A stretch of 54,162 bases of DNA from a virus: positions 1 through 54,162 of the IMG/VR virus record IMGVR_UViG_3300022827_000011. One strand, given 5' to 3'. Shown here in pieces: positions 1,496 through 53,138 of the stretch (its first letter is position 1; each line of letters begins with the position of its first letter). The position numbers and the translations under genes are program-made. The notes under the pieces are model-generated. The model was not told the DNA's origin. It ran no database searches and was given only the letters and a program-made list of their open reading frames with translations.

Positions 1496-1560
1496 TGGTG
1501 CTACAGGAAGGTACCGCTCCTTCTACCACTCAGTTATCAACTGAGGCCCTCACTTTTCGG
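1496..1560 (-). tRNA. Decayed tRNA-like remnant
   Basis: The minus strand carries CTCAGTT and GTGGTAGAA pieces like a D arm and ends in GCACCA, as the intact tRNAs here do, but no proper anticodon arm or T arm can be folded. It is best explained as a remnant of a deleted tRNA. Confidence 0.25.
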
Positions 1561-1695
1561 ACTCTGTAACAATTTTCTATATTCTTCATTGAGATCAGCT
1601 TGATACTCTTACACTTGATCTACACAACTGTATTCATTACTTAGAAGATATGCTTTATAGAGTCAATTCATCTCGCAAGTGTATTTCCTAAATAA

Positions 1696-2166: not shown

Positions 2167-2217
2167 CAGTCTAAGGTCGTTCTTGTTAAATTGTATTTGG
2201 ATTCTTTTACCTAGTTT

Positions 2218-2285
2218 GGGTGTGTAGTTGGCTCAACGCTACAGCGGCGCGATTTAACCAGTCAGCTATAACCGGTACCGTTATT
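2218..2285 (-). tRNA. Decayed tRNA-like remnant
   Basis: The minus strand shows TAGCTGACTGGTTAAAT, which resembles positions 8-25 of a tRNA, but the downstream anticodon and T arms cannot be folded. A similar stretch recurs at about 2823-2873, so these may be duplicates of one lost tRNA. Confidence 0.25.
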
Positions 2286-2326
2286 CAGCCAGAAAATTCT
2301 TGTATGCGCCCGGATTCGCATATAGT

Positions 2327-2396
2327 TGGTAGTCAATGAAGGTTCTGACCCTACGTCTTTGAAATCCGGTACTCTATCCAGTTGAGCTAATCGGCC
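2327..2396 (-). tRNA. Pseudo-tRNA; loop reads UCA
   Basis: The 5' half (GGCCGAT, TA, GCTC/GAGT D arm) and the acceptor stem (6 of 7 pairs) look like a tRNA ending in an encoded CCA. The anticodon loop TTTCAAA would give UCA, which reads UGA. However, the 3' side of the anticodon stem does not pair, the variable loop is missing (70 nt in total) and the T loop is GTCAGAA. I treat it as a decayed tRNA, not a working opal suppressor. Confidence 0.35.
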
Positions 2397-17425: not shown

Positions 17426-18109
17426 TTAAATTTCTGGAAATAAACATTTTTGAATAAAAATATCCACATCAACGGAACTAAGTCCAAGACTTACCATTGT
17501 TCGTGGGGTATGAGGATTTTGTTTTTGAAAATATGCATATCGATTTTGTGCAGCGCGATTTATATTTTCATTGCCTGTATGATTATAGATGCCTACTAAT
17601 GAAAGATAGTCGTCTACATTAGCTAGACTTAAATCCACAATTTGAGCTAGTTCGTCTTCTTTGCTTACATTGCCTGCTGCTATCATGTGTGACGAAAAAA
17701 TAGCCTTAGCCCATTCGGGCAGGTCTCGAGACTTGCGCCACTCTAGCCGAGCTGATTCAGATCCAAACGCCTGAATCATTTCATGAGACGGATCGCTACT
17801 AGCAGAGTAATCGTGAAAAAACCCTGTAATTTTGTTTTTACCAGCAATAACATCTAGCCCAAATATAGGAGCAGAATTATGTAAATGCGGGAATATGCAA
17901 CAATGCATCATCCACAGCCCTCGAGTTTCGCGCGCATCAACTACATCAACATGTGCTCGACGAAACGTATTACTAGTCCACACTCGATTGACCCATCCTG
18001 GACGATTAAATTGTTCCATACCGGGTTCAAATACTTCAGAGCCAACAGTGTTAAACTGTTTAATTAAATGCTCTTGTATTTGAATTAGCGCCTTCCATAC
18101 TTCACTCAT
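17426..18109 (-). CDS. pcyX: Ferredoxin-dependent bilin reductase (PcyA/PebS/PcyX type)
   Basis: These enzymes reduce biliverdin with electrons from ferredoxin. Family marks seen: GWVNRVWTSNTFRRAHVDVV, then IFPHLHNSAPIFGLDVI and ITGFFHDYSAS, where the His of the first and the Asp of the second fall at the positions of the PcyA substrate-binding His/Asp region. At 227 aa it matches PcyA/PebS (about 230-250). It overlaps the heme oxygenase gene by 8 nt. PcyX, described from marine viral metagenomes and linked to non-cyanobacterial phages, converts biliverdin to phycoerythrobilin. I name pcyX from context (alphaproteobacterial signals, operon with heme oxygenase); PebS or PcyA cannot be excluded by eye. 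Confidence 0.8.
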   Translation of the reverse strand: MSEVWKALIQIQEHLIKQFNTVGSEVFEPGMEQFNRPGWVNRVWTSNTFRRAHVDVVDARETRGLWMMHCCIFPHLHNSAPIFGLDVIAGKNKITGFFHDYSASSDPSHEMIQAFGSESARLEWRKSRDLPEWAKAIFSSHMIAAGNVSKEDELAQIVDLSLANVDDYLSLVGIYNHTGNENINRAAQNRYAYFQKQNPHTPRTMVSLGLSSVDVDIFIQKCLFPEI

Positions 18110-18785
18110 TTGTTTTATCTCTATAAATGTAATATAGTTTCAAGGCTCGATTATAAAGAACATTGCACCCTTGATCTTTTTCAATTTGGTCTACATATAG
18201 CTGCAATGCTATTGCAATAATTCCGTTATCGGTATCTAATACAGATTCGTTAATTTCTAATTCCTTAAATAATGTCATAGCAAATTCAAAACATATATTT
18301 GCTTCTGGTGCCATTTCGTCGGATAACATATTACGTATTGTAGATTTCAATACTTCCAAATTGTCAAAATCATACATAGTACCGGACCCTGGATTGCGTT
18401 TGCGAATCATTTGTCCGCCGTACATATCGCCAAAATGTCTTACATAAATATGTGCTAACAACCTATTTTTGTCTTGCATCTGCATTACATAGTCTATATA
18501 TTCAGCAACAACACTACATAAGGATATACTGTTAGGTTTGATATCATATTCGGTTTCTATCTCGGAAATATCTGCAAAAATTCGTTGTGCTCTTGCAACA
18601 TGCTCTATTCCAACGAGAACATTGCAAACAGTTGCTTGATTTTCTAACGCTTGATATATTGCATGTTGATTGCTTAAATATCTGTGATATTCTTTTGCAG
18701 ACATACCGTTTAACAACTTACGAGCATGAGTAGTGCGTTCTGCACGTTGATGATTAGCCCATGTTAGCTCTTTTAATGTACTCAC
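18102..18785 (-). CDS. Heme oxygenase
   Basis: It cleaves heme to biliverdin, CO and iron. The proximal His lies in TWANHQRAE near the N-terminus, and the distal helix reads YVRHFGDMYGGQMIRK, matching the Y--Y-GD-GGQ signature of biliverdin-forming HO. At 227 aa it is close to the usual 210-240. GTG start overlapping the clpS stop (GTGA). Its product is the substrate of the reductase encoded immediately downstream, giving a two-step heme-to-phycobilin cassette. ALAS at 44018-45217 could raise the heme supply. Confidence 0.88.
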   Translation of the reverse strand: MSTLKELTWANHQRAERTTHARKLLNGMSAKEYHRYLSNQHAIYQALENQATVCNVLVGIEHVARAQRIFADISEIETEYDIKPNSISLCSVVAEYIDYVMQMQDKNRLLAHIYVRHFGDMYGGQMIRKRNPGSGTMYDFDNLEVLKSTIRNMLSDEMAPEANICFEFAMTLFKELEINESVLDTDNGIIAIALQLYVDQIEKDQGCNVLYNRALKLYYIYRDKTNE

Positions 18786-23589: not shown

Positions 23590-23948
23590 AGCAAGGGTAC
23601 AGCATGAAACACACTGTACCCTTGCAACTTTTCTGTTTCTAGGTAAGTTGCCAACCCAAGTAGCTTATGCCGCTAGGGCAAAGCTCTCAATAGATGCGTT
23701 AGTATTTGCATTTATCAAATTTATTGCGTTAACCGAGCTTTCGCCGGATATTAATCAAATATGTGTTTTAATCCACGTCGATCCTATTTATCGCCCATAG
23801 CGTTTATCATTTAGTTGTTTACAAGCACTACCTTGAAGATGTCAATCACCCGTCTAAACTAATGGTGGACGATCTGGGTACCGCCCCCAGGTCCGTTAAA
23901 TCTATTACATATTATCTAGGACAACAGCCAATATATCTCTGCTGAACA
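23590..23948 (-). ncRNA. ssrA: tmRNA, circularly permuted (two-piece) form
   Basis: The acceptor piece comes first: T-arm-like hairpin CTGGG/CCCAG (23874-23890), strand ATCGTCC (23867-23873), discriminator A and CCA (23863-23865). After about 66 nt of intervening sequence the coding piece starts with GGGCGAT (23790-23796), which pairs fully with ATCGTCC. GGATCGACGTGGATT matches the conserved tmRNA 5' region. ACATATT (23758-23764) pairs with AATATGT of the acceptor piece (23907-23913), as helix 2 should. The tag reads ANTNASIESFALAA then TAA (23665-23709), with the H5 hairpin around the stop codon. The T loop is GGCGGTA, not TTCRANN. A 12-bp hairpin (23592-23626) closes the 3' end. Permuted tmRNA is typical of Alphaproteobacteria. 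Confidence 0.88.
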
Positions 23949-23954
23949 TACTTA

Positions 23955-23983
23955 TTTATAACATTACTCGGCGGAAGTGTCAA
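23955..23983 (-). promoter_or_regulatory. tmRNA promoter
   Basis: TTGACA, 17 bases, TATAAA: a consensus -35 and near-consensus -10 placed so that transcription begins about 35-40 nt before the helix-2 strand of the acceptor piece. It overlaps the end of the 57-aa zinc-ribbon gene. Confidence 0.82.
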
Positions 23984-29179: not shown

Positions 29180-30274
29180 TCAAATAGCACAAGATTCGCA
29201 TATTCCGTCATCGCTGTCTTCCGATGGCAATGTTGGAAGGCCTGCTAATTTGTTAACATCTAATTCGCCCTGACCGTCATTGGTTTGGAAGTAGTAAAGC
29301 TGCTTTCCTCCAAATTTGTAAAACATTAATAATTCTTGTAACATTACGCTCATTGGGATCTTTTCATCTTCGTAGAATGCCGGATTATGACTAGTATTTG
29401 TGCTTATACCTTGATCGATATATTTTTGTAATACTGCCATAATCTTCAAATATCCCTGCGGCGACTTTTGATCCCACAGTAAATCGTATTTGTTTTTTAA
29501 TCTTTTGTATTCGGGAACAACTTGTTTTAGAACCCCGTGTTTGCTTTGCTTAACGCTAATTAAACTACGAGGCGGTTCGATACCATTTGTGGCGTTAGCT
29601 ACCTGCGCTGATGTTTCTGCCGGCATTAAACAAGAAGTAGTTGCATTACGAATACCAGTTGCTTTGAGTTGTTTACGTAATCCTACCCAGTCTTGACGCT
29701 CGACATGAGGAACTAGTTCGTCAACTGCTTTTTTATAAGTTTGATTTGGAGTGATTCCTTGTCCGTATTTAGTTTGATCGACTCTTGTACATGCGCCTTT
29801 TTCTACAGCTAGATCTGCACTGGCTTTAATAAGCCAATAACTCCAAGCTTCGGCCCATTCGTCTACGAGTGCAAGTCCGTTAGCATTGATATGTTGATAA
29901 GTTAGATCGTTCTTTGCTAACCAGTAAGCAAAATTAATAATACCCACTCCTAATGGTCTAAATTCTTCGGTACTTAGTCGTGCAGCAAGAACTGGATAAT
30001 TTTGATAATCTAGTAATGCATCTAATCCACGAATTGCAAGTCTACATACTCTCTCAAAATCGTCTGTAGTCTTGATATTACCCCAATTTATTGCACTAAG
30101 AGTACATAAAGATATACGACCATCGGGGTCATTTAGGTCATTAAGTGGGCGAGTCGGAAGGTCAATTTCTGAGCAATTGTGAACCAGTATGCCATTTGCA
30201 TAAAAGTTTTCATTTCCTTCTACAGTGATGTCATATACCGGCTCGATTGTAGCTAATTTTGTTATTGTTATCAT
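29180..30274 (-). CDS. nrdA: NrdA C-terminal fragment fused to the C-half of a split intein
   Basis: Residues 1-33 are the intein C-half and end in VHN; the extein starts CSEIDLPTRPLNDLND, the region of E. coli NrdA that carries the thiyl-radical Cys (C439). CTLSAINWG, NPAFYEDEKIPMSVM and the terminal CESCAI (redox CxxC) follow. ATG 30274 is chosen over a TTG 21 nt upstream because AGAGGAAG lies 8 nt before it. The N-terminal partner is at 30400-32472; the two proteins must be joined by trans-splicing to give a 766-aa NrdA (E. coli has 761). Confidence 0.92.
   Translation of the reverse strand: MITITKLATIEPVYDITVEGNENFYANGILVHNCSEIDLPTRPLNDLNDPDGRISLCTLSAINWGNIKTTDDFERVCRLAIRGLDALLDYQNYPVLAARLSTEEFRPLGVGIINFAYWLAKNDLTYQHINANGLALVDEWAEAWSYWLIKASADLAVEKGACTRVDQTKYGQGITPNQTYKKAVDELVPHVERQDWVGLRKQLKATGIRNATTSCLMPAETSAQVANATNGIEPPRSLISVKQSKHGVLKQVVPEYKRLKNKYDLLWDQKSPQGYLKIMAVLQKYIDQGISTNTSHNPAFYEDEKIPMSVMLQELLMFYKFGGKQLYYFQTNDGQGELDVNKLAGLPTLPSEDSDDGICESCAI
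30176..30274 (-). other. Split-intein C-half (IntC, 33 aa)
   Basis: PVYDITVEGNENFYANGILV is followed by HN, covering intein blocks F and G with the catalytic penultimate His-Asn. The +1 residue is Cys. It resembles the C-half of NrdA-type split inteins known from marine metagenomes. It has its own start codon and ribosome binding site. Confidence 0.9.
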
Positions 30275-30399
30275 AATATTCTTCCTCTGTTCCAATTCCT
30301 AATAATCGGATGTGTTGCTTTAATATGTTTATTTTCTCGCCGCCTGTAATTCATATTTGCATTCCAGACTTATTTATTCATGTATGTACGGAGAAATTA

Positions 30400-32472
30400 T
30401 TACTTACAAATTAACAACACGTCGGTTTCTGTTAAGTCAACTGCCATCACATAACCGCGATTCTTAGTATAGATTAGATGATCGCCTGTACATTTAATCC
30501 TGACTCCTGCTGCATTATCTACAATTTCATATAATTCTGCTGCTGGGTTCATTAATGCAAAATTGGTAATTTTCTTGTATTCGGTTACATCTGTTTCAAT
30601 ATTATATGACCGTACAGCGACGCTATTATGTAACTTCATTAAGTTACCCAAGTCTTCGATGTTGATGCGTAACTTGTTATCGTCGGCAATAATGTCAATC
30701 TTTGTATCACCAGTAACACATAAATTTGACATCTTGATGGGTGCAAACTCTGGTAGGAAGCTGCCTTGTTCGTTGGCGTTGTCCACGTTCTGCAAATAGA
30801 TTCTGCCTGTAGACTTGCGTTCTTCCATGAATGCACTAAACAGATCAATTGCTTTAACCGACTTTTTGCGTACAGTTGGGTTGTGTTCTGCTGCTTCGTA
30901 TAGCTCACGGAATCGCGGTTGGTCTGCAAAGAATGCATCGTATAATCCCGGTACGTCACTAGGCGAAAATAATGTAATGTTACCGCCTTGAATTAATCTC
31001 TCGTACATTAGCTTATTAAATTGTACACCGTAATCTAAATGCCGAATTCGATTTTCTTCTGTGCCTTTGTTGTTCTTAAGCACCAGCATATCTTCTACTT
31101 CTAGATGCCATAGCGGATAGTATGCTGTAGCAGCACCGCCTCTTACCGAACCCTGGCTGTTATGAGTTAACACCATCGAGTCAGACACCGACGAACTTGC
31201 AAAGAATGTATTAGTGTCTTCTACTGTAATGTCAACATACCCTGTTGGATTTTGTTGTCCAACTGTAATCGAATATAAATGTACAATGCCATTTTCTGAA
31301 ATAACGTTGTCAAATTCTGTAAGTTCTTGTGGATATTTTTGTGTTACAACATCGTTATCTACAATCATAATTGGATGATTTACACTACAATTTATTACTG
31401 TTCCGTTTGTAAATTCTAGTCTAACCTGCCGGTCTTCTGTTACTAGTGTATCCCATTTGTTAACAACTTTTCGATATACAATATTTCCGTCTTGATATGA
31501 TTTAATTTTCATTCCGGTATTAAGATCTGCAATACGGATTTTTTTTGTGTTTGGATCAATAATATCTTCGTTGATTATTTCAACAATAGTATCCGGAGTT
31601 AGGCAGCAACTCTTTACAGCCGACTGGAACAACTTATAAAAGGGAATTACTCCTGTATGATATGCATCTCCCTTGCGAATTGGAGAACCGATAGCACGGA
31701 TACTGCCAGCGCCAATTCCAATACCAGCTTTTTGACTTACATACTTTACAATGGCACTGGAAGTAGCATTAATACTGTCTAAGCTATCTCCGGCTTCAAT
31801 TAGCACACAACTACTGAATTGGCGTTGTGGTGTACGTACACCTGCCATAACAGGCGTGGGTAAGCTAATATCGTGTTGACTAATTGCATCATAATATTCT
31901 TTAACCCATTTAATCCTAGTTTCAATGGGGTATTCCTGAAATAATGTAGCAGCAATCAATATGTAACACATTTGTGGTGTTTCAAAGATGTCTCCGGTGG
32001 CACGATTTTGTACCAGATACTTTCCACGTAATTGTTCCATTGCAACATAGGTAAGAGTTTCGTCGCGCTCGTGCTTAATAAAACTATTGATCTTTTCCCA
32101 TTCAAGATCACTGTATTTTGTAGTTAATTCGGGATCGTAGAATCCTGTAGCAGTATTACGGTCAACTAGTTGCTTGACAGTACAAGGAGTAAAACTACCG
32201 TATACTTCCTTACGTAGTGCATAATTAATTAGCCTGCCGCCAACATATTGATAATTCGGAGTATCTTCGTTGATAAGGTCGGCCGCAGCTTTAATTAACG
32301 TTTCTTGAATTTCTTTCGTAGTCATTCCATTATAAAACTGAATTTGACTCTTAATTTCTACTTCGCTTGGGCTCACTCCTGTTATACCTTCACATGCAAA
32401 AAATACCACTTGGTGGATTTTTTCAATATTTAGAGGTTCTTTCGTGCCGCCACGCTTAGTAACTTGAATCAT
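30400..32472 (-). CDS. nrdA: NrdA N-terminal fragment with a mini-intein and the N-half of a split intein
   Basis: Extein segments match E. coli NrdA: an N-terminal ATP-cone-like region (1-90), RQFSSCVLIEAGDSLDSI with the redox Cys, GIGIGAGSIRAIGSP, and after the first intein SQGSVRGGAATAYYPLWHLE to PIKMSNL. A 149-aa intein occupies residues 290-438 and a 106-aa IntN occupies 585-690 and ends the protein. After cis-splicing of the first and trans-splicing with the product of 29180-30274, a normal class Ia large subunit results. Start supported by GGACAGC; late-type motif TATAAATA 33 nt upstream. Confidence 0.93.
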   Translation of the reverse strand: MIQVTKRGGTKEPLNIEKIHQVVFFACEGITGVSPSEVEIKSQIQFYNGMTTKEIQETLIKAAADLINEDTPNYQYVGGRLINYALRKEVYGSFTPCTVKQLVDRNTATGFYDPELTTKYSDLEWEKINSFIKHERDETLTYVAMEQLRGKYLVQNRATGDIFETPQMCYILIAATLFQEYPIETRIKWVKEYYDAISQHDISLPTPVMAGVRTPQRQFSSCVLIEAGDSLDSINATSSAIVKYVSQKAGIGIGAGSIRAIGSPIRKGDAYHTGVIPFYKLFQSAVKSCCLTPDTIVEIINEDIIDPNTKKIRIADLNTGMKIKSYQDGNIVYRKVVNKWDTLVTEDRQVRLEFTNGTVINCSVNHPIMIVDNDVVTQKYPQELTEFDNVISENGIVHLYSITVGQQNPTGYVDITVEDTNTFFASSSVSDSMVLTHNSQGSVRGGAATAYYPLWHLEVEDMLVLKNNKGTEENRIRHLDYGVQFNKLMYERLIQGGNITLFSPSDVPGLYDAFFADQPRFRELYEAAEHNPTVRKKSVKAIDLFSAFMEERKSTGRIYLQNVDNANEQGSFLPEFAPIKMSNLCVTGDTKIDIIADDNKLRINIEDLGNLMKLHNSVAVRSYNIETDVTEYKKITNFALMNPAAELYEIVDNAAGVRIKCTGDHLIYTKNRGYVMAVDLTETDVLLICK
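30403..30720 (-). other. Split-intein N-half (IntN, 106 aa)
   Basis: Begins CVTGDTKIDI (block A), with a block B-like IKCTGDHLIYT (TxxH form) about residues 75-85 and NRGYVMAVDL near the end. The insertion point SNL/C is the catalytic Cys site of NrdA. The sequence ends at a stop, 125 bp before IntC begins, and no homing endonuclease lies between. Confidence 0.9.
31159..31605 (-). other. Contiguous mini-intein in NrdA (149 aa)
   Basis: Starts CLTPDTIVEI, contains block B NCSVNHPIM, block F GYVDITVEDTNTFFAS and ends VLTHN, with Ser at +1. It is inserted after VKSC, just before SQGSVRGG. The length and lack of a central domain show there is no endonuclease, so it cannot home on its own. Confidence 0.92.
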
Positions 32473-43986: not shown

Positions 43987-44017
43987 GTTGCTTACTGTAT
44001 TAACTAATAAATACTGT

Positions 44018-45217
44018 ATGATAGACCCTGATCCATTTCGAGCAATACTAACTGAATATCGCGGTACAGGAAAATACCGAGTATTCAATGATATTAATAG
44101 ACAACAAGGCAGCTTTCCTAATGCAGTCTGGAATAATAACAATACTCCTAAACCGGTTATCAATTGGTGTTCAAACGATTACCTAGGAATGGGACAACAC
44201 CCGTTGGTGTTAGCAGCAATGCATTCTGCGTTGGATCACGCAGGAGCAGGATCAGGCGGTACTAGGAACATAGGAGGTACTGGTCAATATCATATTGCAC
44301 TTGAAAAAGAGCTAGCAAGTTTACATAATAAACATGCTGCATTGCTGTTTTCAAGTGCATATGTTGCAAATGAATGGAGTCTAATCGCATTAAGCAAAAT
44401 CATTCCCGACATTGTGTTTTTAAGTGATTCCAAGAATCATGCAAGCCTCATACAGGGTATCCGACACAGTGGTGCTATCTATAAGATATGGCAGCACAAT
44501 GACATAAGCGATCTAGAAGCAAAATTGGTAGAAGTCGTTGCATCAAATCAAACTCCTTGCATTGTATTTGAATCTGTGTATAGCATGGACGGAGACGTTA
44601 GCCCAATTGAGCACATTTGCAATCTTGCCGAGCGTTATGGCGCTATTACTTACATAGACGAGGTTCATGCGGTAGGATTGTATGGAGAGCATGGAGCAGG
44701 GTACCTAGAACACCTAGGAATTCAACATCGTGTAGATATAGTCAACGGAACGCTCGGCAAGGCAATAGGCATTAGTGGCGGATATATTGCTGCGGACAGG
44801 GATGTTATAGACGCAATTCGCAGTATAGCCAGTGGTTTTATTTTCACAACATCTATGCCACCGGTATTGTGTGCAGGAGCATTGGCTAGCATAAAATATC
44901 TAAAGACACATTATAGCCTTCGGCAACAACATCAGCTAAACACGGAAAACTTTAAACAACAATTACAATATGCAAATATTGAATATTTAAAAGAATCGTG
45001 TACTCATATTGTTCCTGTAATGATAAGAGATGCAAAACGAGCTAAGTTGATCAGCGATGTATTGTTGGACAAATACGGAATATTTGTCCAACCTATTGTT
45101 TGGCCAACTGTAGCAGTAGGCACAGAAAGATTAAGGTTTGCTCCTACTCCGTTACACACAGACATTATGATAGAGCATTGTGTAAAATCATTAAAGGAAG
45201 CATTAAATGAATATTAA
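44018..45217 (+). CDS. hemA: 5-aminolevulinate synthase (Shemin pathway)
   Basis: ALAS condenses glycine and succinyl-CoA to 5-aminolevulinate, the first step of heme synthesis in Alphaproteobacteria. The 399-aa protein has [75 protein letters not shown] and the PLP-Lys motif [15 protein letters not shown], all ALAS/AONS hallmarks, with the N-terminal [15 protein letters not shown] region favouring ALAS. ATG 44018 gives the usual length. It overlaps the DUF454 gene by 11 nt. It would feed heme, and hence the heme oxygenase/bilin reductase pair at 17.4-18.8 kb. Confidence 0.94.
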
Positions 45218-46868: not shown

Positions 46869-48158
46869 TTATTTATCAAGCTTTGGATATACAACGCGCC
46901 CGATTGGTGATTCTATTTTGAGTATACGAGTCTTGCCGGAAAACTTTACATCTCGGTCGATGCGACGAGTATTTGCTCCTTCGCCTCTAGTATCGGGAGA
47001 AACTTGCCTCATTAATTTTCCAAGTAATTCTTCCATGTTTTCTCTGATAGAATCAAACGCGTCAAACCCAACTGCATTCCATCGATCTCGAGGATCGCTG
47101 TACGTACTTGCGCGTTTTAATAATAGTATGGCCATTTGTTTAATAATATCAAAGGCCGCCTGTCTAGGAGTGCTATGCTTTTTTAATATTACTATAGTTT
47201 CTGTCGCTATACTATTCGATGCCTTGTCAAGGTTTGCTATCATTTCATCAATTGCCCATCCTTCGTCTGGATAATTCATTCCGTCGTACGGCGATTTTTC
47301 TTTTGCAAATTTTCTTTCAAAGTCTCGAGGTATTATATTGCTGGATCGATTTGGAGCCTTTTGTGCTAGGGTACGCATGACTTTTTTAGCAGCATCTGAT
47401 ATGGACGCTGCAATTCCGTCTTCGTCGGTGTCGGAGCTGCCTTTTACATATTGTAGCGTTATCAATGCCGGATATCCTCCATGAGTGCCTATTGCATCAT
47501 TTGCAATTTCCTTGGCAAACTCTACATTGTCGGCTACGTATACTCCGCCCATACTAGCTGTGCTTGCACCGTAGGTGTCGGTGTCGTATGTTTTCTTAGG
47601 AGGTCGAGCCAATAGTCCATTTTTAAGTATACTAGGCACCAATGCACTACTAGTTCCGTGATACATTATTTGAGTGCGCTGTTGCTGACGTTCGTATATC
47701 TTTGTAGATTCAAGTAATACATCGAACTTTAATCGTAAATATGTTTTAAACTTTTCAAAATTAACAGTGTTGTCAAATATATAAAGTTGCGAATACGAAA
47801 GCTTTCTCCGACGAGAATCTGGATAAGTTTTATCATTGCTAAACGTATAATTGTTGCTTGTAATTTTTTCTAACACTGCCTGCGACGCATTACCTAGTAT
47901 ATGCAATTGGCCAGTGGCATCTAACATTAAGAACATGTAATCGTAAGCATTTCCAATTTGTGCATCTTTGATTGCTAGTGTTTGTAATTTTTCTAAAATT
48001 TTAATACTCTTTTGATCAACTGATTCGCAAAGTGTAACTCCTATCAATTCTGCTTCAACTAAGTCAAGGTACAACGAGTAATCTTGTATGCCATTAAAAT
48101 CTTCTAATATTAACGGATAGTGATCTATAGAAAAGTTGTGATATCTCATAATAGTCAT
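46869..48158 (-). CDS. Putative ADP-ribosyltransferase-fold protein (429 aa)
   Basis: Residues about 165-225 contain IMYHGTSSALVPSILKNGLL and GGVYVADNVEFAKEIANDA, the H-x-T and GG-Y-A--- layout of PARP/Tpt1-type ADP-ribosyltransferases, where His binds NAD. The catalytic Glu cannot be assigned with certainty. The N-terminal 160 residues and the helical C-terminus are unknown. T4 packages the ADP-ribosyltransferase Alt in its head, a useful analogy given the surrounding virion-type genes. No biochemical claim can be made from sequence alone. Confidence 0.6.
   Translation of the reverse strand: MTIMRYHNFSIDHYPLILEDFNGIQDYSLYLDLVEAELIGVTLCESVDQKSIKILEKLQTLAIKDAQIGNAYDYMFLMLDATGQLHILGNASQAVLEKITSNNYTFSNDKTYPDSRRRKLSYSQLYIFDNTVNFEKFKTYLRLKFDVLLESTKIYERQQQRTQIMYHGTSSALVPSILKNGLLARPPKKTYDTDTYGASTASMGGVYVADNVEFAKEIANDAIGTHGGYPALITLQYVKGSSDTDEDGIAASISDAAKKVMRTLAQKAPNRSSNIIPRDFERKFAKEKSPYDGMNYPDEGWAIDEMIANLDKASNSIATETIVILKKHSTPRQAAFDIIKQMAILLLKRASTYSDPRDRWNAVGFDAFDSIRENMEELLGKLMRQVSPDTRGEGANTRRIDRDVKFSGKTRILKIESPIGRVVYPKLDK
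46870..46877 (-). promoter_or_regulatory. Late-promoter-like GATAAATA
   Basis: 18 nt before the 82-aa gene, overlapping the stop codon region of the ADP-ribosyltransferase-like gene. Confidence 0.5.
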
Positions 48159-49920: not shown

Positions 49921-50244
49921 ATGAGAGTTACTACACTCGAAACTGCAAATAAAAACTGTAGAGTATATCAACTAGGCTGGTGTTATCCTATATATATCCA
50001 GAATTTTTACCATTTTGAAAAATCTAAGAGCGTACTGATCCGGACATTCGGCGATCCGGCTTTTAAATATCAGTTTAATAAATGCAGTCTTTCTGTAAAG
50101 GATAGGTACACCTACTACTATCCGAAACAACGACGTTGGTTTGCTGGTAATCGCCTGTGGAACAACACTTCGCCGCGTGACTATTGGCTAGTTTTTAGAA
50201 GCAATGCCGATAGAACACTGGCGCTATTGATGCTGCCTTTATGA
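49921..50244 (+). CDS. Hypothetical protein heading the repeat array (107 aa)
   Basis: Basic, aromatic-rich protein; the C-terminal part reads RRWFAGNRLWN, DYWLVFRSNADRTLALLML. A similar pattern (QWFIGANL, TYIIAFVN) occurs in a broken frame at 51251-51373. ATGA overlap with the first repeat gene. Function unknown. Confidence 0.65.
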   Translation: MRVTTLETANKNCRVYQLGWCYPIYIQNFYHFEKSKSVLIRTFGDPAFKYQFNKCSLSVKDRYTYYYPKQRRWFAGNRLWNNTSPRDYWLVFRSNADRTLALLMLPL

Positions 50245-50666
50245 ATCCAGAAGTTGACGCATATGGCACACAAAGATGGTATGAGAACGGCAAACTACAT
50301 AGGATTGATGCACCTGCTTTAATATATGCAAATGGTGATCAATCTTGGTACAAGAACGGCAAACTGCATAGGATTGATGGCCCTGCAGTAATAAGAGATG
50401 GCACACAATCTTGGTACAAAAAAGGTGTACTGCATAGAACAGATGGTGCTGCTGCGATTTATGCAGGTGGTGATCAATTTTGGTACAGAGACGATGTACT
50501 GCATAGAACAGATGGTCCGGCTGTAATTTATGCAGATGGCACACAAGAATGGTACTTAGATAATATTCGTTACAAATTTGCCCAATGGATCGAGTTGACA
50601 CCACTCAACAATAATGCTAAGTTGTTGTTGCAAATCCAATGGAGCAACAATGAATCCAGTAGTTGA
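50241..50666 (+). CDS. DGPA-repeat protein 1, four units (141 aa)
   Basis: After MNPEVDAYGTQR come four units of about 23 aa of the type WYKNGKLHRIDGPAVI--DG-Q-, then a tail WYLDNIRYKFAQWIELTPL and AKLLLQIQWSNNESSS. The unit is MORN-like (Y-NG-x-H-DG-A). The conserved tail and near-identical DNA of units point to duplication and recombination. The next gene starts 17 nt before this one ends. Confidence 0.8.
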   Translation: MNPEVDAYGTQRWYENGKLHRIDAPALIYANGDQSWYKNGKLHRIDGPAVIRDGTQSWYKKGVLHRTDGAAAIYAGGDQFWYRDDVLHRTDGPAVIYADGTQEWYLDNIRYKFAQWIELTPLNNNAKLLLQIQWSNNESSS

Positions 50667-51066
50667 CAAATACGGAACACAACGGTGGTACACGAACGGT
50701 GTACTGCATAGGACTGATGGCCCTTCTGTAATATGGGCAGATGGTGATCAATTTTGGTACCTCAACGGCAAACTGCATAGAACAGATGCTCCTGCTGTAA
50801 TAGATGCAAGTGGTGATCAATATTGGTACAAGAACGGCAAACTGCATAGGACCAATGGCCCTGCTGTAATTTATGCGAATGGAGATCAACTTTGGTACAT
50901 GAACGATGTACTGCATAGGACCGATGGCCCTGCTGTAATATGTGCAAATGGCACACAACTTTGGTACCTAGACGATACTTTTTACAGTTTCGCCCAATGG
51001 CTCAAGTTGACACCACTCGATGATAATGCCAAGTTGTTGTTGCAAATCCAATGGAGTTCACAATGA
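50650..51066 (+). CDS. DGPA-repeat protein 2, four units (138 aa)
   Basis: Starts MNPVVDKYGTQR, four WY-NG-LHRTDGPAVI units, tail FAQWLKLTPLDDNAKLLLQ ending QWSSQ. The ATG lies out of frame inside the last codons of gene 1, a coupling repeated at each junction. Overlaps the next gene by 4 nt. Confidence 0.8.
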   Translation: MNPVVDKYGTQRWYTNGVLHRTDGPSVIWADGDQFWYLNGKLHRTDAPAVIDASGDQYWYKNGKLHRTNGPAVIYANGDQLWYMNDVLHRTDGPAVICANGTQLWYLDDTFYSFAQWLKLTPLDDNAKLLLQIQWSSQ

Positions 51067-51254
51067 CTAATTATATTATTTGTATTATTAATTGGAACGT
51101 AAAGCATTTGCAGAAACAGTTACACGGGTGTCCTTATGCAATCGAATACAAATATAATAACGGTCGTGCATGTGATCATCGTATGGTTGTAAAATGCCGG
51201 GCATACAAATATCTAGTAGTCCGGCTCAGATTAGCCGGATTAATAAAGAATTAA
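51063..51254 (+). CDS. Hypothetical protein, possibly a truncated paralogue (63 aa)
   Basis: Starts at MTNYIICIINWNVKHLQ, overlapping the repeat gene by 4 nt. Basic C-terminus VVKCRAYKYLVVRLRLAG. A different frame continues after its stop with a segment like the C-terminus of the 107-aa gene, so this may be a frameshifted copy of that type of gene. Confidence 0.5.
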   Translation: MTNYIICIINWNVKHLQKQLHGCPYAIEYKYNNGRACDHRMVVKCRAYKYLVVRLRLAGLIKN

Positions 51255-51373
51255 TAGTTACAAGTATTTCTCATCAATGGTTTATAGGAGCAAACCTGTC
51301 ACATCGTAATAATAAAACTTATATTATTGCTTTTGTTAATCTTAATCACAGAAATTGGGCTTGTTTATTGTAA
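51251..51373 (+). pseudogene. Frame-shifted C-terminal remnant
   Basis: An open frame without a start codon encodes SISHQWFIGANLSHRNNKTY then IIAFVNLNHRNWACLL, similar in spacing of W, F, G, Y and L to the end of the 107-aa gene at 49921-50244. It follows the 63-aa gene directly, which suggests a frameshift in a once longer gene. Confidence 0.4.
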
Positions 51374-51375
51374 GG

Positions 51376-51558
51376 TTACTTAACAATCGGTAGTCGAAAG
51401 GTTAACACACTTCTAGGACCGCGAGTGGTATTAATTTTAATTTCGCCAGTTTTGTCAAAATATTCAATTTTAGTAATAACTGCTGATTGATTATTAGGAC
51501 CTACTAAAATTGTTTGACCTAGTTCCAGTTCTACGTTCACACGAGTAAGGGTGCTCAT
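51376..51558 (-). CDS. Hypothetical small protein (60 aa)
   Basis: Strong AAGGAGA ribosome binding site. A small beta-barrel-like pattern (VNVELELGQTILVGPNNQSA, TKIEYFDKTGEIKIN). An AATAAATA motif lies 23 nt upstream. It is a lone minus-strand gene within the plus-strand array. Confidence 0.68.
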   Translation of the reverse strand: MSTLTRVNVELELGQTILVGPNNQSAVITKIEYFDKTGEIKINTTRGPRSVLTFRLPIVK

Positions 51559-51581
51559 TATATTCTCCTTGACTTACTTGG

Positions 51582-51589
51582 TATTTATT
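51582..51589 (-). promoter_or_regulatory. Late-promoter-like AATAAATA
   Basis: 23 nt before the 60-aa gene on the minus strand. Confidence 0.45.
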
Positions 51590-51595
51590 CCTTGG

Positions 51596-51624
51596 TTGAC
51601 ATTGGTGTGTTAAAGTTGTATATA
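51596..51624 (+). promoter_or_regulatory. Sigma70-like promoter of the second repeat block
   Basis: TTGACA, 17 bases, TATATA on the plus strand, 140 bp before DGPA-repeat gene 3. Confidence 0.68.
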
Positions 51625-51764
51625 ACAGTAGTATCTAAGCAATCAACTTTAATACAAAATACGTCTACTACAGTCTATGCATATAGATAACCGATACTAT
51701 CTGGTCCTTGAATTGATAGCATCTGTTCTAATTTTAAATAATGATAAATTTCAGTGGTGCAAAA

Positions 51765-52193
51765 ATGAATCCAATAATTGACAAATTTGGTACAAAGCGA
51801 TGGTACAAGAACGAGCTGTTACATAAAGACCACGGTCCGGCTATAATTTATGCAAATGGCTCACAAGAATGGTACAACAACGGTGTACTGCATAGAATGG
51901 ATGGGCCTGCTGTGATCGACGCGGATGGAGATCGATTTTGGTTCAGAGACGGCAACCTGCATAGGACCGATGGCCCTGCTGCAATTTATGCAAGTGGTGA
52001 TCAATTTTGGTTCAGGGACGGTGTACGTCATAGAATCGATGGTCCTGCTATAACATATGCAAGTGGTGATCAAGAATGGTACAAGGACGGCAAACAATAC
52101 AGTTTCACCCAATGGCTCGAGTTGACACCACTCAACAATAATGCTAAGTTGTTGTTGCAAATCCAATGGAGCGATCATGAATCCAGTAGTTGA
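51765..52193 (+). CDS. DGPA-repeat protein 3, four units (142 aa)
   Basis: Starts MNPIIDKFGTKRWYKNELL; four units, the first most diverged (LHKDHGPAII), two with WFRDG in place of WYKNG. Tail FTQWLELTPLNNNAKLLLQ, ending QWSDHESSS. First gene after the promoter at 51596; junction overlap of 17 nt with gene 4. Confidence 0.8.
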   Translation: MNPIIDKFGTKRWYKNELLHKDHGPAIIYANGSQEWYNNGVLHRMDGPAVIDADGDRFWFRDGNLHRTDGPAAIYASGDQFWFRDGVRHRIDGPAITYASGDQEWYKDGKQYSFTQWLELTPLNNNAKLLLQIQWSDHESSS

Positions 52194-52536
52194 CGCACAT
52201 GGCACACAACGATGGTACATCAACGATGTACTGCATAGGACTAATGGTGCTGCTGTAATACTTGCAAGTGGCAAACAATATTGGTACAAGAACGGCAAAC
52301 TGCATAGGACCGATGGCCCTGCTGCAATTTATGCAAGTGGCACACAAGAATGGTACATGAACGGAGAACTGCATAGAACCAACGGTCCTGCTATAATTTA
52401 TGCAAGTGGCACACAATATTGGTACTTAGATAATATTCGTTACAGGTTCAACCAATGGATCGAGTTGACACCACTTGATGACAATGCCAAACTGTTGTTG
52501 CAAATCCAGTGGAGCAACAATGAATCCAGTAGTTGA
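52177..52536 (+). CDS. DGPA-repeat protein 4, three units (119 aa)
   Basis: Starts MNPVVDAHGTQRWYINDVL; three units (NGAAVI, DGPAAI, NGPAII) and the tail FNQWIELTPLDDNAKLLLQ, ending QWSNNESSS. The start is embedded out of frame in the end of gene 3. Confidence 0.8.
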   Translation: MNPVVDAHGTQRWYINDVLHRTNGAAVILASGKQYWYKNGKLHRTDGPAAIYASGTQEWYMNGELHRTNGPAIIYASGTQYWYLDNIRYRFNQWIELTPLDDNAKLLLQIQWSNNESSS

Positions 52537-52879
52537 CAAAGATGGCACACACGAATGGTACCTCAACGGAGATCTGCATAGGACCGATGGGCCTGCTGTA
52601 ATACATGCAAATGGTGATCAAATTTGGTATGAGAACGGAGATCTGCATAGAACGGATGGCCCTGCTGCAACTTACGCAGACGGCACACAAAGATGGTATG
52701 AGAACGGCAAACTGCATAGAATCAATGGTCCTGCTGCGATTTATGCAAGTGGTGATCAAGAATGGTACAAGGACGGCAAACAATACAGTTTCACCCAATG
52801 GCTTGAGTTGACACCACTTGATAATAATGCTAAGTTGTTGCTGCAAATCCAATGGAGCGATCATGAATCCAGTAGTTGA
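52520..52879 (+). CDS. DGPA-repeat protein 5, three units (119 aa)
   Basis: Starts MNPVVDKDGTHEWYLNGDL; three units and the tail FTQWLELTPLDNNAKLLLQ, ending QWSDHESSS. Overlap of 17 nt with gene 4 and with gene 6. Confidence 0.8.
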   Translation: MNPVVDKDGTHEWYLNGDLHRTDGPAVIHANGDQIWYENGDLHRTDGPAATYADGTQRWYENGKLHRINGPAAIYASGDQEWYKDGKQYSFTQWLELTPLDNNAKLLLQIQWSDHESSS

Positions 52880-53138
52880 CGAATATGGCACACAAAGATG
52901 GTATGAGAACGGCAAACTGCATAGAATCAATGCACCTGCTGCAATTTATGCAAGTGGTGATCAATTTTGGTACAAGAACGGCAAACTGCATAGAATCAAT
53001 GCACCTGCTGTAATATGTGCAAATGGTGATCAATATTGGTGCCTAGACCACAAACAATACAGTTTTAACCAATGGCTCGAGTTGACACCCCTCGATGATA
53101 ATGCTAAGTTGTTGTTGCAACTCAAATACAGTACCTAA
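52863..53138 (+). CDS. DGPA-repeat protein 6, two units (91 aa)
   Basis: Starts MNPVVDEYGTQRWYENGKL; two units with NAPA in place of DGPA, then tail FNQWLELTPLDDNAKLLLQ ending LKYST. The array shortens steadily (4,4,4,3,3,2 units). The last gene overlaps the convergent MUG113-type gene by 17 nt. Confidence 0.8.
   Translation: MNPVVDEYGTQRWYENGKLHRINAPAAIYASGDQFWYKNGKLHRINAPAVICANGDQYWCLDHKQYSFNQWLELTPLDDNAKLLLQLKYST

What the first reader, a model, noticed from the sequence alone, without database searches (positions are those of the whole stretch)
23590..23983. Phage-encoded, circularly permuted tmRNA with its own promoter
Seen: 3' acceptor strand with CCA upstream of the 5' strand, 7-bp acceptor pairing (GGGCGAT with ATCGTCC), helix-2 pairing between the pieces, the GGATCGACG signature, a 14-residue tag ANTNASIESFALAA ending at TAA, and the H5 hairpin around the stop. 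Known: two-piece tmRNA is typical of Alphaproteobacteria, and some phages carry one-piece tmRNAs. Inference: the phage brings its own trans-translation RNA with a distinct tag, possibly to rescue ribosomes on degraded host mRNA or to change tag fate.
Basis: partly seen in the sequence, partly recalled or inferred. Interest (0 to 1): 0.92.

Follow-up and report, generated by a model that had tools for sequence, protein, structure and literature searches.

The report
Phage two-piece tmRNA with conserved spacer
A large phage carries its own copy of a bacterial ribosome-rescue RNA (a two-piece tmRNA, a kind already known in phages), and the 66-base spacer that should be cut out and thrown away is, unexpectedly, almost unchanged in four different phage versions of the gene.

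Summary
On the minus strand (23983-23591) lies an alphaproteobacterial-type, circularly permuted (two-piece) tmRNA gene: ARAGORN call, Rfam alpha_tmRNA 96.4 bits and tmRNA_permuted 95.8 bits. It has a TTGACA-17-TATAAATA promoter-like site, the alanine G3:U70 pair, and tag ANTNASIESFALAA. The record is a 54-kb fragment collinear with a 251-kb T4-superfamily phage contig that has the tmRNA in the same place. No SmpB was found in it or in 15 tmRNA-carrying viral records, so host SmpB is presumably used. Phage-encoded two-piece tmRNAs are already published (Melnitz, Mosig), so the gene itself is a new member of a known kind.

Two features are less ordinary. (1) The intervening sequence (IVS) is the best-conserved part outside the tRNA-like core: 61/66 identical where the tag ORF is 29/45, 51 of 66 columns invariant in four lineages, with a covarying closing stem. 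Across 112 distinct phage IVSs (median 86 nt; bacterial 26.5) the spacer often holds conserved cassettes, in one family a small membrane-protein ORF. I found no description of this. (2) Sixteen of 35 phage genes have TATAAATA upstream, against 1 of 64 bacterial. IVS function is unproven. A changed tag fate is not supported: the tag ends ALAA.

The parts
23978..23983 (-). -35 box TTGACA of the tmRNA promoter
   Evidence: exact consensus, 17-nt spacer to TATAAATA; the same arrangement in L050, L491 and phage Melnitz
23953..23960 (-). TATAAATA, -10-like and T4-late-promoter-like motif
   Evidence: TATAAATA upstream of 16/35 dereplicated phage cp-tmRNAs vs 1/64 bacterial, expected 0.74
23863..23926 (-). 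acceptor piece (3' part of the tRNA-like domain, ends CCA at 23863; T arm 23890-23874 with alpha-type T-loop GGCGGTA; discriminator A 23866)
   Evidence: RF04321/RF01849 alignments; the 5' boundary is the model's, the mature 5' end is unmapped
23867..23873 (-). acceptor-stem 3' strand ATCGTCC
   Evidence: pairs with 23796-23790; 4 of 7 pairs show double changes across four lineages
23797..23862 (-). intervening sequence (IVS), 66 nt, predicted to be removed; conserved three-helix element
   Evidence: 61/66 identical to L050, 60/66 to L067, 51 of 66 columns invariant in four lineages
23855..23859 (-). IVS closing helix P1, 5' strand (GTTTA)
   Evidence: pairs with 23806-23802; 2 of 5 pairs with double change, 1 with one-sided change
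23802..23806 (-). IVS closing helix P1, 3' strand (TAAAC)
23837..23851 (-). IVS hairpin P2 (GGGTG-ATTGA-CATCT)
   Evidence: predicted; its one variable pair changes G-U to G-C
23822..23835 (-). IVS hairpin P3 (CAAG-GTAGTG-CTTG)
   Evidence: predicted; stem invariant, so no covariation test is possible; the only change is in the loop
23790..23796 (-). 5' end of coding piece, acceptor 5' strand GGGCGAT (predicted RNase P site before 23796), G3 of G3:U70
23665..23709 (-). tag reading frame GCA..TAA, ANTNASIESFALAA*
23624..23651 (-). 3' stem-loop GCAACTT..AAGTTGC with conserved CTAGAAACAGAA of the coding piece
   Evidence: RF01849 alignment; 3' domain 37/41 identical to L050
23591..23625 (-). 16-bp hairpin at the 3' end of the unit, no U-run
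   Evidence: -26.5 kcal/mol, z -7.1; not seen in L050

Best explanation
This is an alphaproteobacterial-type circularly permuted ssrA gene, inherited vertically within a lineage of large T4-superfamily phages. It is read as one precursor from its own promoter (TTGACA-17-TATAAATA), so it could be transcribed by host sigma-70 RNA polymerase and possibly again late by a gp55-type sigma. Host tRNA-processing enzymes (RNase P before 23796 and 3' maturation at 23863) should cut out the 66-nt IVS, leaving an acceptor piece and a coding piece held together by the acceptor stem and the inner helix. With host AlaRS (G3:U70, A73), EF-Tu and SmpB it should rescue stalled ribosomes and add ANTNASIESFALAA, a ClpXP-type tag, topping up rescue capacity during infection. 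In this lineage the IVS is itself under strong selection as a structured RNA (covarying closing stem plus two hairpins). I think it most likely acts within the tmRNA precursor, by presenting the two cut sites and/or as a released small RNA. SHOWN by sequence: the gene, its pairings, tag, promoter-like motif, synteny, no SmpB match, IVS conservation and closing-stem covariation. INFERRED: transcription, processing, charging, ribosome rescue, and any IVS function.
For: ARAGORN and two Rfam models. Acceptor-stem covariation, 100% of cells paired against 90% in shuffles. The gene sits at the same place in a 251-kb relative whose proteins are mostly 30-80% identical, so it has been kept over long divergence. 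gp23 and gp55 homologues in that relative. SmpB matches: none in the window, none in 15 viral records. IVS 61/66 vs tag 29/45 and leader 39/56; Fisher p 4e-7 for IVS vs leader plus rest. A third and a fourth lineage with different, compensated acceptor stems keep the IVS core. In IMG/VR the full core was found only inside cp-tmRNAs. Phage IVSs in general have covarying closing stems: mean 9.8 bp vs 5.3 with 3' halves swapped, 91 distinct stem sequences.
Against: No RNA data: transcription, the two mature pieces and charging are untested. The host is unknown, so whether it has a compatible SmpB or its own tmRNA could not be checked. The IVS does not fold unusually stably by itself (z +0.4), and only four lineages support its structure; two of its three helices show no double changes. 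TATAAATA is not over-represented in the relative overall (26 vs 35 for permuted motifs; 7 vs 3.9 within 100 nt upstream of ORFs), and none lies just upstream of its gp23, so late use is a guess.
Confidence: 0.8

Rival explanations
1. Plain phage two-piece tmRNA. The IVS is conserved only because it must fold to present the RNase P and 3'-processing sites; it has no role after excision.
For: The closing stem covaries in this family and in phage IVSs generally. The element is found only inside cp-tmRNAs (15 of 15 matches of another IVS family).
Against: Bacterial IVSs (median 26.5 nt, diverged) process without such conservation. A processing stem would not need near-invariant hairpin loops and a long invariant single-stranded stretch.
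Confidence: 0.45
2. The IVS similarity is a recent recombination or cassette transfer between phages, not selection.
For: IVS families are shared by tmRNAs with different tags and T arms, so IVS and mature parts can have different histories.
Against: In the window family the flanking acceptor strands differ on both sides between L067, L491 and the window while the IVS core stays the same, and the gene is syntenic with G001. A swap would have to end exactly at the IVS borders more than once.
Confidence: 0.15
3. The phage RNA is a decoy that ties up host SmpB or AlaRS and inhibits host trans-translation rather than supplementing it.
For: The phages lack SmpB. [quoted passage not shown] coli (cited in PMC11915505).
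Against: The tag frame, resume region, stop codon and H5 are intact, and nearly all relatives parsed keep a tag ending in AA. A decoy would not need them.
Confidence: 0.1
4. The IVS carries a second promoter for the coding piece (TTGACA-16-TGTAAA).
For: A perfect TTGACA lies in the invariant core and both variable core positions fall in the 'spacer' (sequence).
Against: The -10 match is only 4 of 6, the spacer is 14 of 16 invariant, which promoters do not need, and the other phage IVS families show no such pattern.
Confidence: 0.07
5. The IVS encodes a 12-residue peptide (GTG..TAA, VIDIFKVVLVNN).
For: The frame is open in all four lineages, and other phage IVSs do encode small proteins.
Against: Both substitutions inside the frame change the residue (F to L, V to E) and none is silent; there is no good ribosome-binding site.
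Confidence: 0.04

Closest known systems
Two-piece ssrA of Methylophilales phage Melnitz and Pelagibacter phage Mosig (PMC9004378)
   Same: Phage-borne, alpha-type, circularly permuted. Melnitz has the same TTGACA-17-TATAAATA upstream. Mosig's SsrA lies next to a putative late-promoter transcription accessory gene.
   Different: The paper reports a glutamine riboswitch with the Melnitz gene; none was found here. IVS of Melnitz 142 nt and Mosig 44 nt, unrelated to this one. The paper does not discuss IVS content in the passages I read.
Rfam RF01849 alpha_tmRNA (Caulobacter-type two-piece tmRNA)
   Same: Gene order acceptor piece - IVS - coding piece, alpha T-loop GGCGGTA, G3:U70, tag resume context, ACAGAA-type 3' stem.
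   Different: Score 96.4 bits against 270 for a bacterial-like member in a viral contig (L087); long conserved IVS; different promoter type; a tag different from all bacterial tags listed.
Rfam RF04321 tmRNA_permuted and the 2025 tmRNA database (PMC11915505)
   Same: Matches the permuted model at 95.8 bits. The database lists 79 phage tmRNAs of all forms and one permuted (nominally archaeal) gene with a tRNA gene inside its IVS.
   Different: No conserved IVS element or IVS ORF in phages appears in the passages read.
Annotated ssrA of alphaproteobacterial phages Lacusarx and DSS3_MAL1; unannotated copies in DSS3P8 and Cp1R7A-A1
   Same: Permuted alpha-type tmRNA genes with long IVSs (74-106 nt).
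   Different: Different phage groups; unrelated IVS sequences.

Membership tests
alpha-type circularly permuted (two-piece) tmRNA | covariance-model match above the curated cut-off | tested here: met
   RF01849 96.4 bits (cut-off 50); RF04321 95.8 bits (cut-off 47)
alpha-type circularly permuted (two-piece) tmRNA | permuted order: acceptor 3' strand with CCA upstream of the 5' strand, separated by an IVS | tested here: met
   CCA end 23863, IVS 66 nt, 5' strand at 23796
alpha-type circularly permuted (two-piece) tmRNA | acceptor stem pairs between the two pieces | tested here: met
   7 bp; 4 pairs with compensatory change in relatives
alpha-type circularly permuted (two-piece) tmRNA | alanine identity G3:U70 with A73 | tested here: met
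   GGG.../...UCC-A-CCA; the U-G pair is invariant in 4 of 4 lineages
alpha-type circularly permuted (two-piece) tmRNA | tag reading frame with stop and a hydrophobic/AA end | tested here: met
   ANTNASIESFALAA*
alpha-type circularly permuted (two-piece) tmRNA | two mature RNA pieces | not testable with these tools
   needs RNA from infected cells
alpha-type circularly permuted (two-piece) tmRNA | SmpB-dependent tagging | not testable with these tools
   no SmpB in the record; host unknown
phage-encoded tmRNA | gene lies in a phage genome, not in contaminating host DNA | tested here: met
   IMG/VR record; syntenic in a 251-kb contig with gp23 and gp55 homologues
T4-type late promoter | TATAAATA used by gp55-RNA polymerase, no -35 box needed | tested here: inconclusive
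   motif present, but with a perfect -35 box; gp55 homologue in the relative; modest enrichment upstream of ORFs there; no transcript data
conserved IVS RNA element | closing helix kept through compensatory changes | tested here: met
   P1: 2 of 5 pairs with double change, 1 one-sided, 100% of cells paired; only 4 sequences

The most novel reading that the evidence does not exclude
Phage two-piece tmRNA genes use the discarded spacer as a protected cargo site. When the precursor is cut, a conserved small RNA (as in this window) or, in other phages, the message for a small membrane protein is released and has its own role in infection.
Probability: 0.3. Interest if true: 0.78.

Novelty: new variant of a known kind. 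Interest (0 to 1): 0.55.

Why it matters
The IVS of two-piece tmRNA has been treated as waste. If phages keep conserved RNAs or genes in it, then one ribosome-rescue locus yields two products, and cp-tmRNA genes become a simple handle for finding small phage RNAs and proteins. It also makes an old question testable: why phages carry tmRNA at all, and when in infection it is made, since many share a TTGACA plus TATAAATA promoter rarely seen in bacterial copies.

Tried and rejected
blastn of the tmRNA against 50,697 phage records: no match. The IVS against phage records gave only chance-level hits; against Rfam one miRNA hit at E 2.9, chance; against 385 alphaproteobacterial genomes chance-level matches, the best of which (L492) is AT-rich DNA without a tmRNA. 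An intermolecular duplex of the IVS with the rest of the precursor was no better than shuffled. Single-sequence stability of phage IVS inner parts is not unusual (mean z -0.28 vs -0.37 control), so I do not claim stable inner folds. A GTTTA/TAAAC helix within the core (IVS 4-8 with 42-46) was dropped because L491 breaks it; the covarying partner is IVS 57-61. ARAGORN's 11-nt IVS for L050 is a misplacement, corrected by direct parsing. The 17-base IVS pattern gave 23 new matches, 22 of them unrelated DNA; only L491 is a true fourth lineage. Held papers gave no report on IVS content in phages.

Full report
1. Observation. The window is a complete IMG/VR virus record of 54,162 bases, a linear fragment. 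On its minus strand ARAGORN finds a permuted tmRNA, tag ANTNASIESFALAA, and Rfam's alpha_tmRNA and tmRNA_permuted models match at 96.4 and 95.8 bits, well over their cut-offs. The promoter is TTGACA-17-TATAAATA at 23983-23953.

2. Setting. The window is collinear, inverted, with a 251-kb viral contig (G001, locus L103). Shared proteins are mostly 30-80% identical, and the tmRNA lies in the same place. G001 has T4-type major capsid gp23 and late sigma gp55 homologues. The tmRNA is therefore an old, vertically kept phage gene, not contamination. SmpB was not found in the window nor in 15 viral records fetched through cp-tmRNA motifs, three of them over 430 kb.

3. Known precedent. Phage two-piece tmRNAs are published. 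PMC9004378 counted 53 among phage genomes and described Melnitz and Mosig; PMC11915505 built RF04321 and lists 79 phage tmRNAs of all forms. Isolates of alphaproteobacterial phages carry them too. My pattern scans gave 144 phage and 89 bacterial cp-tmRNAs for comparison.

4. The spacer. Compared with the relative L050, the 66-nt IVS is 61/66 identical, including a 55-nt run without mismatch. The tag ORF is 29/45, the leader 39/56, and the TLD strands 56/56. L067 (60/66) and L491, found by pattern, add two lineages with different acceptor stems. Across the four, 51 of 66 IVS columns are invariant, while 4 of 7 acceptor pairs change on both sides. The IVS closing helix (IVS 4-8 with 57-61) has two double changes and one wobble change; all 83 cells pair, against 90% in shuffles, and slid controls fall to 39-58%. 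Hence selection probably acts on the IVS as RNA. The full core was found only within cp-tmRNAs.

5. Is it general? Phage IVSs are longer than bacterial ones (median 81 vs 26.5 nt in matched scans, p 8e-16). Most have a 9-12 bp closing stem; 91 different stem sequences occur (mean 9.8 vs 5.3 bp with swapped halves). Forty phage pairs have IVS identity of at least 0.80 with coding identity below 0.75, against 0 of 69 bacterial pairs; these pairs are not independent. IVS families recur in tmRNAs with different tags and T arms; one was found only in tmRNA context (15 of 15). In one marine family the IVS contains a Shine-Dalgarno-like AAAGGAG and overlapping small ORFs. The second (44 aa, membrane-like) varies mostly at third codon positions (28 of 46 variable columns) with more silent than changing codon differences (368 vs 211), so it is very probably protein-coding. 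Precedent for IVS contents: one permuted gene with a tRNA in its IVS (PMC11915505).

6. Promoter. TATAAATA stands upstream of 16 of 35 dereplicated phage cp-tmRNAs (expected 0.74) and 1 of 64 bacterial ones (p 5e-8; against AT-rich bacterial copies p 0.001). Bacterial copies often show CTATATT-like boxes. The motif equals the T4 late consensus, but here it follows a perfect -35 box, and genome-wide support in G001 is modest. I read it as an early promoter that might also serve late; untested. The phage genes share ancestry, so the 16 are not independent.

7. Mechanism. Shown: gene, pairing, tag, promoter-like motif, synteny, IVS constraint. Inferred from established tmRNA biology: one precursor, RNase P and 3' processing into two pieces, alanylation, EF-Tu and host SmpB, tagging for ClpXP. 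The likely benefit is extra rescue capacity when phage infection creates many broken messages. For the IVS I rate a processing-only role somewhat more likely (0.45) than a role after release (0.3).

8. Verdict. The tmRNA itself is a new member of a known kind. The conserved, covarying IVS element, as part of a wider phage pattern, makes it a new variant. Limits: no RNA data, unknown host, four lineages only, no metagenome scan available.

Noticed in passing
1496-1570 (-): tRNA-Ile(GAU)-like cloverleaf missed by ARAGORN and Rfam: acceptor GTTACAG/CTGTAGC, anticodon loop TTGATAA, T-loop AGCGGTA resembling the alpha tmRNA T-loop, ends ACCA. The surrounding 99 nt are 95% identical to the 251-kb relative; the cloverleaf is essentially the MFE fold.
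   Followed up: partly
2215-2334 (-): About 120 nt of apparently noncoding DNA strongly conserved with the relative, just upstream of ORF 1948-2166; no Rfam match.
   Followed up: partly
17426-18785 (-): Heme oxygenase next to a ferredoxin-dependent bilin reductase, as in reported pigment genes of marine phages (from memory); 126 viral contigs encode relatives of the reductase.
   Followed up: partly
29180-32472 (-): Ribonucleotide reductase large subunit split over two ORFs; the first ends in an intein splicing domain, which suggests a split intein.
   Followed up: no
50241-53138 (+): Six consecutive ORFs all match one and the same gene of the relative (G001 about 56.7 kb): a tandem expansion of a small unknown protein.
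   Followed up: no
46869-48158 (-) and 43988-45217 (+): A protein with a sub-threshold PARP catalytic-domain match, and a PLP-dependent class I/II aminotransferase.
   Followed up: no
3973 (-): TATAAATA upstream of the tRNA cluster, with a TTGACA only a few bases before it; the tRNA genes may share the tmRNA's promoter style.
   Followed up: no
L371, L376, L381, L389, L419, L425, L434, L462, L465 (IVS of their tmRNA genes): The tmRNA spacer encodes a conserved 44-residue membrane-like protein, with a Shine-Dalgarno-like site and an overlapping 23-residue ORF upstream; no match in isolate phage records.
   Followed up: partly
L499 (phage Melnitz, IVS of ssrA, 142 nt): The IVS of the published Melnitz tmRNA holds an unannotated start with GGAG upstream (ATGTTTAAATGG...), open through the rest of the IVS.
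   Followed up: no
L050, 3' end of the tmRNA gene: Two successive copies of the 3' stem-loop (..CAACAGAA.. and ..AATAGAA..) where the window has one.
   Followed up: no
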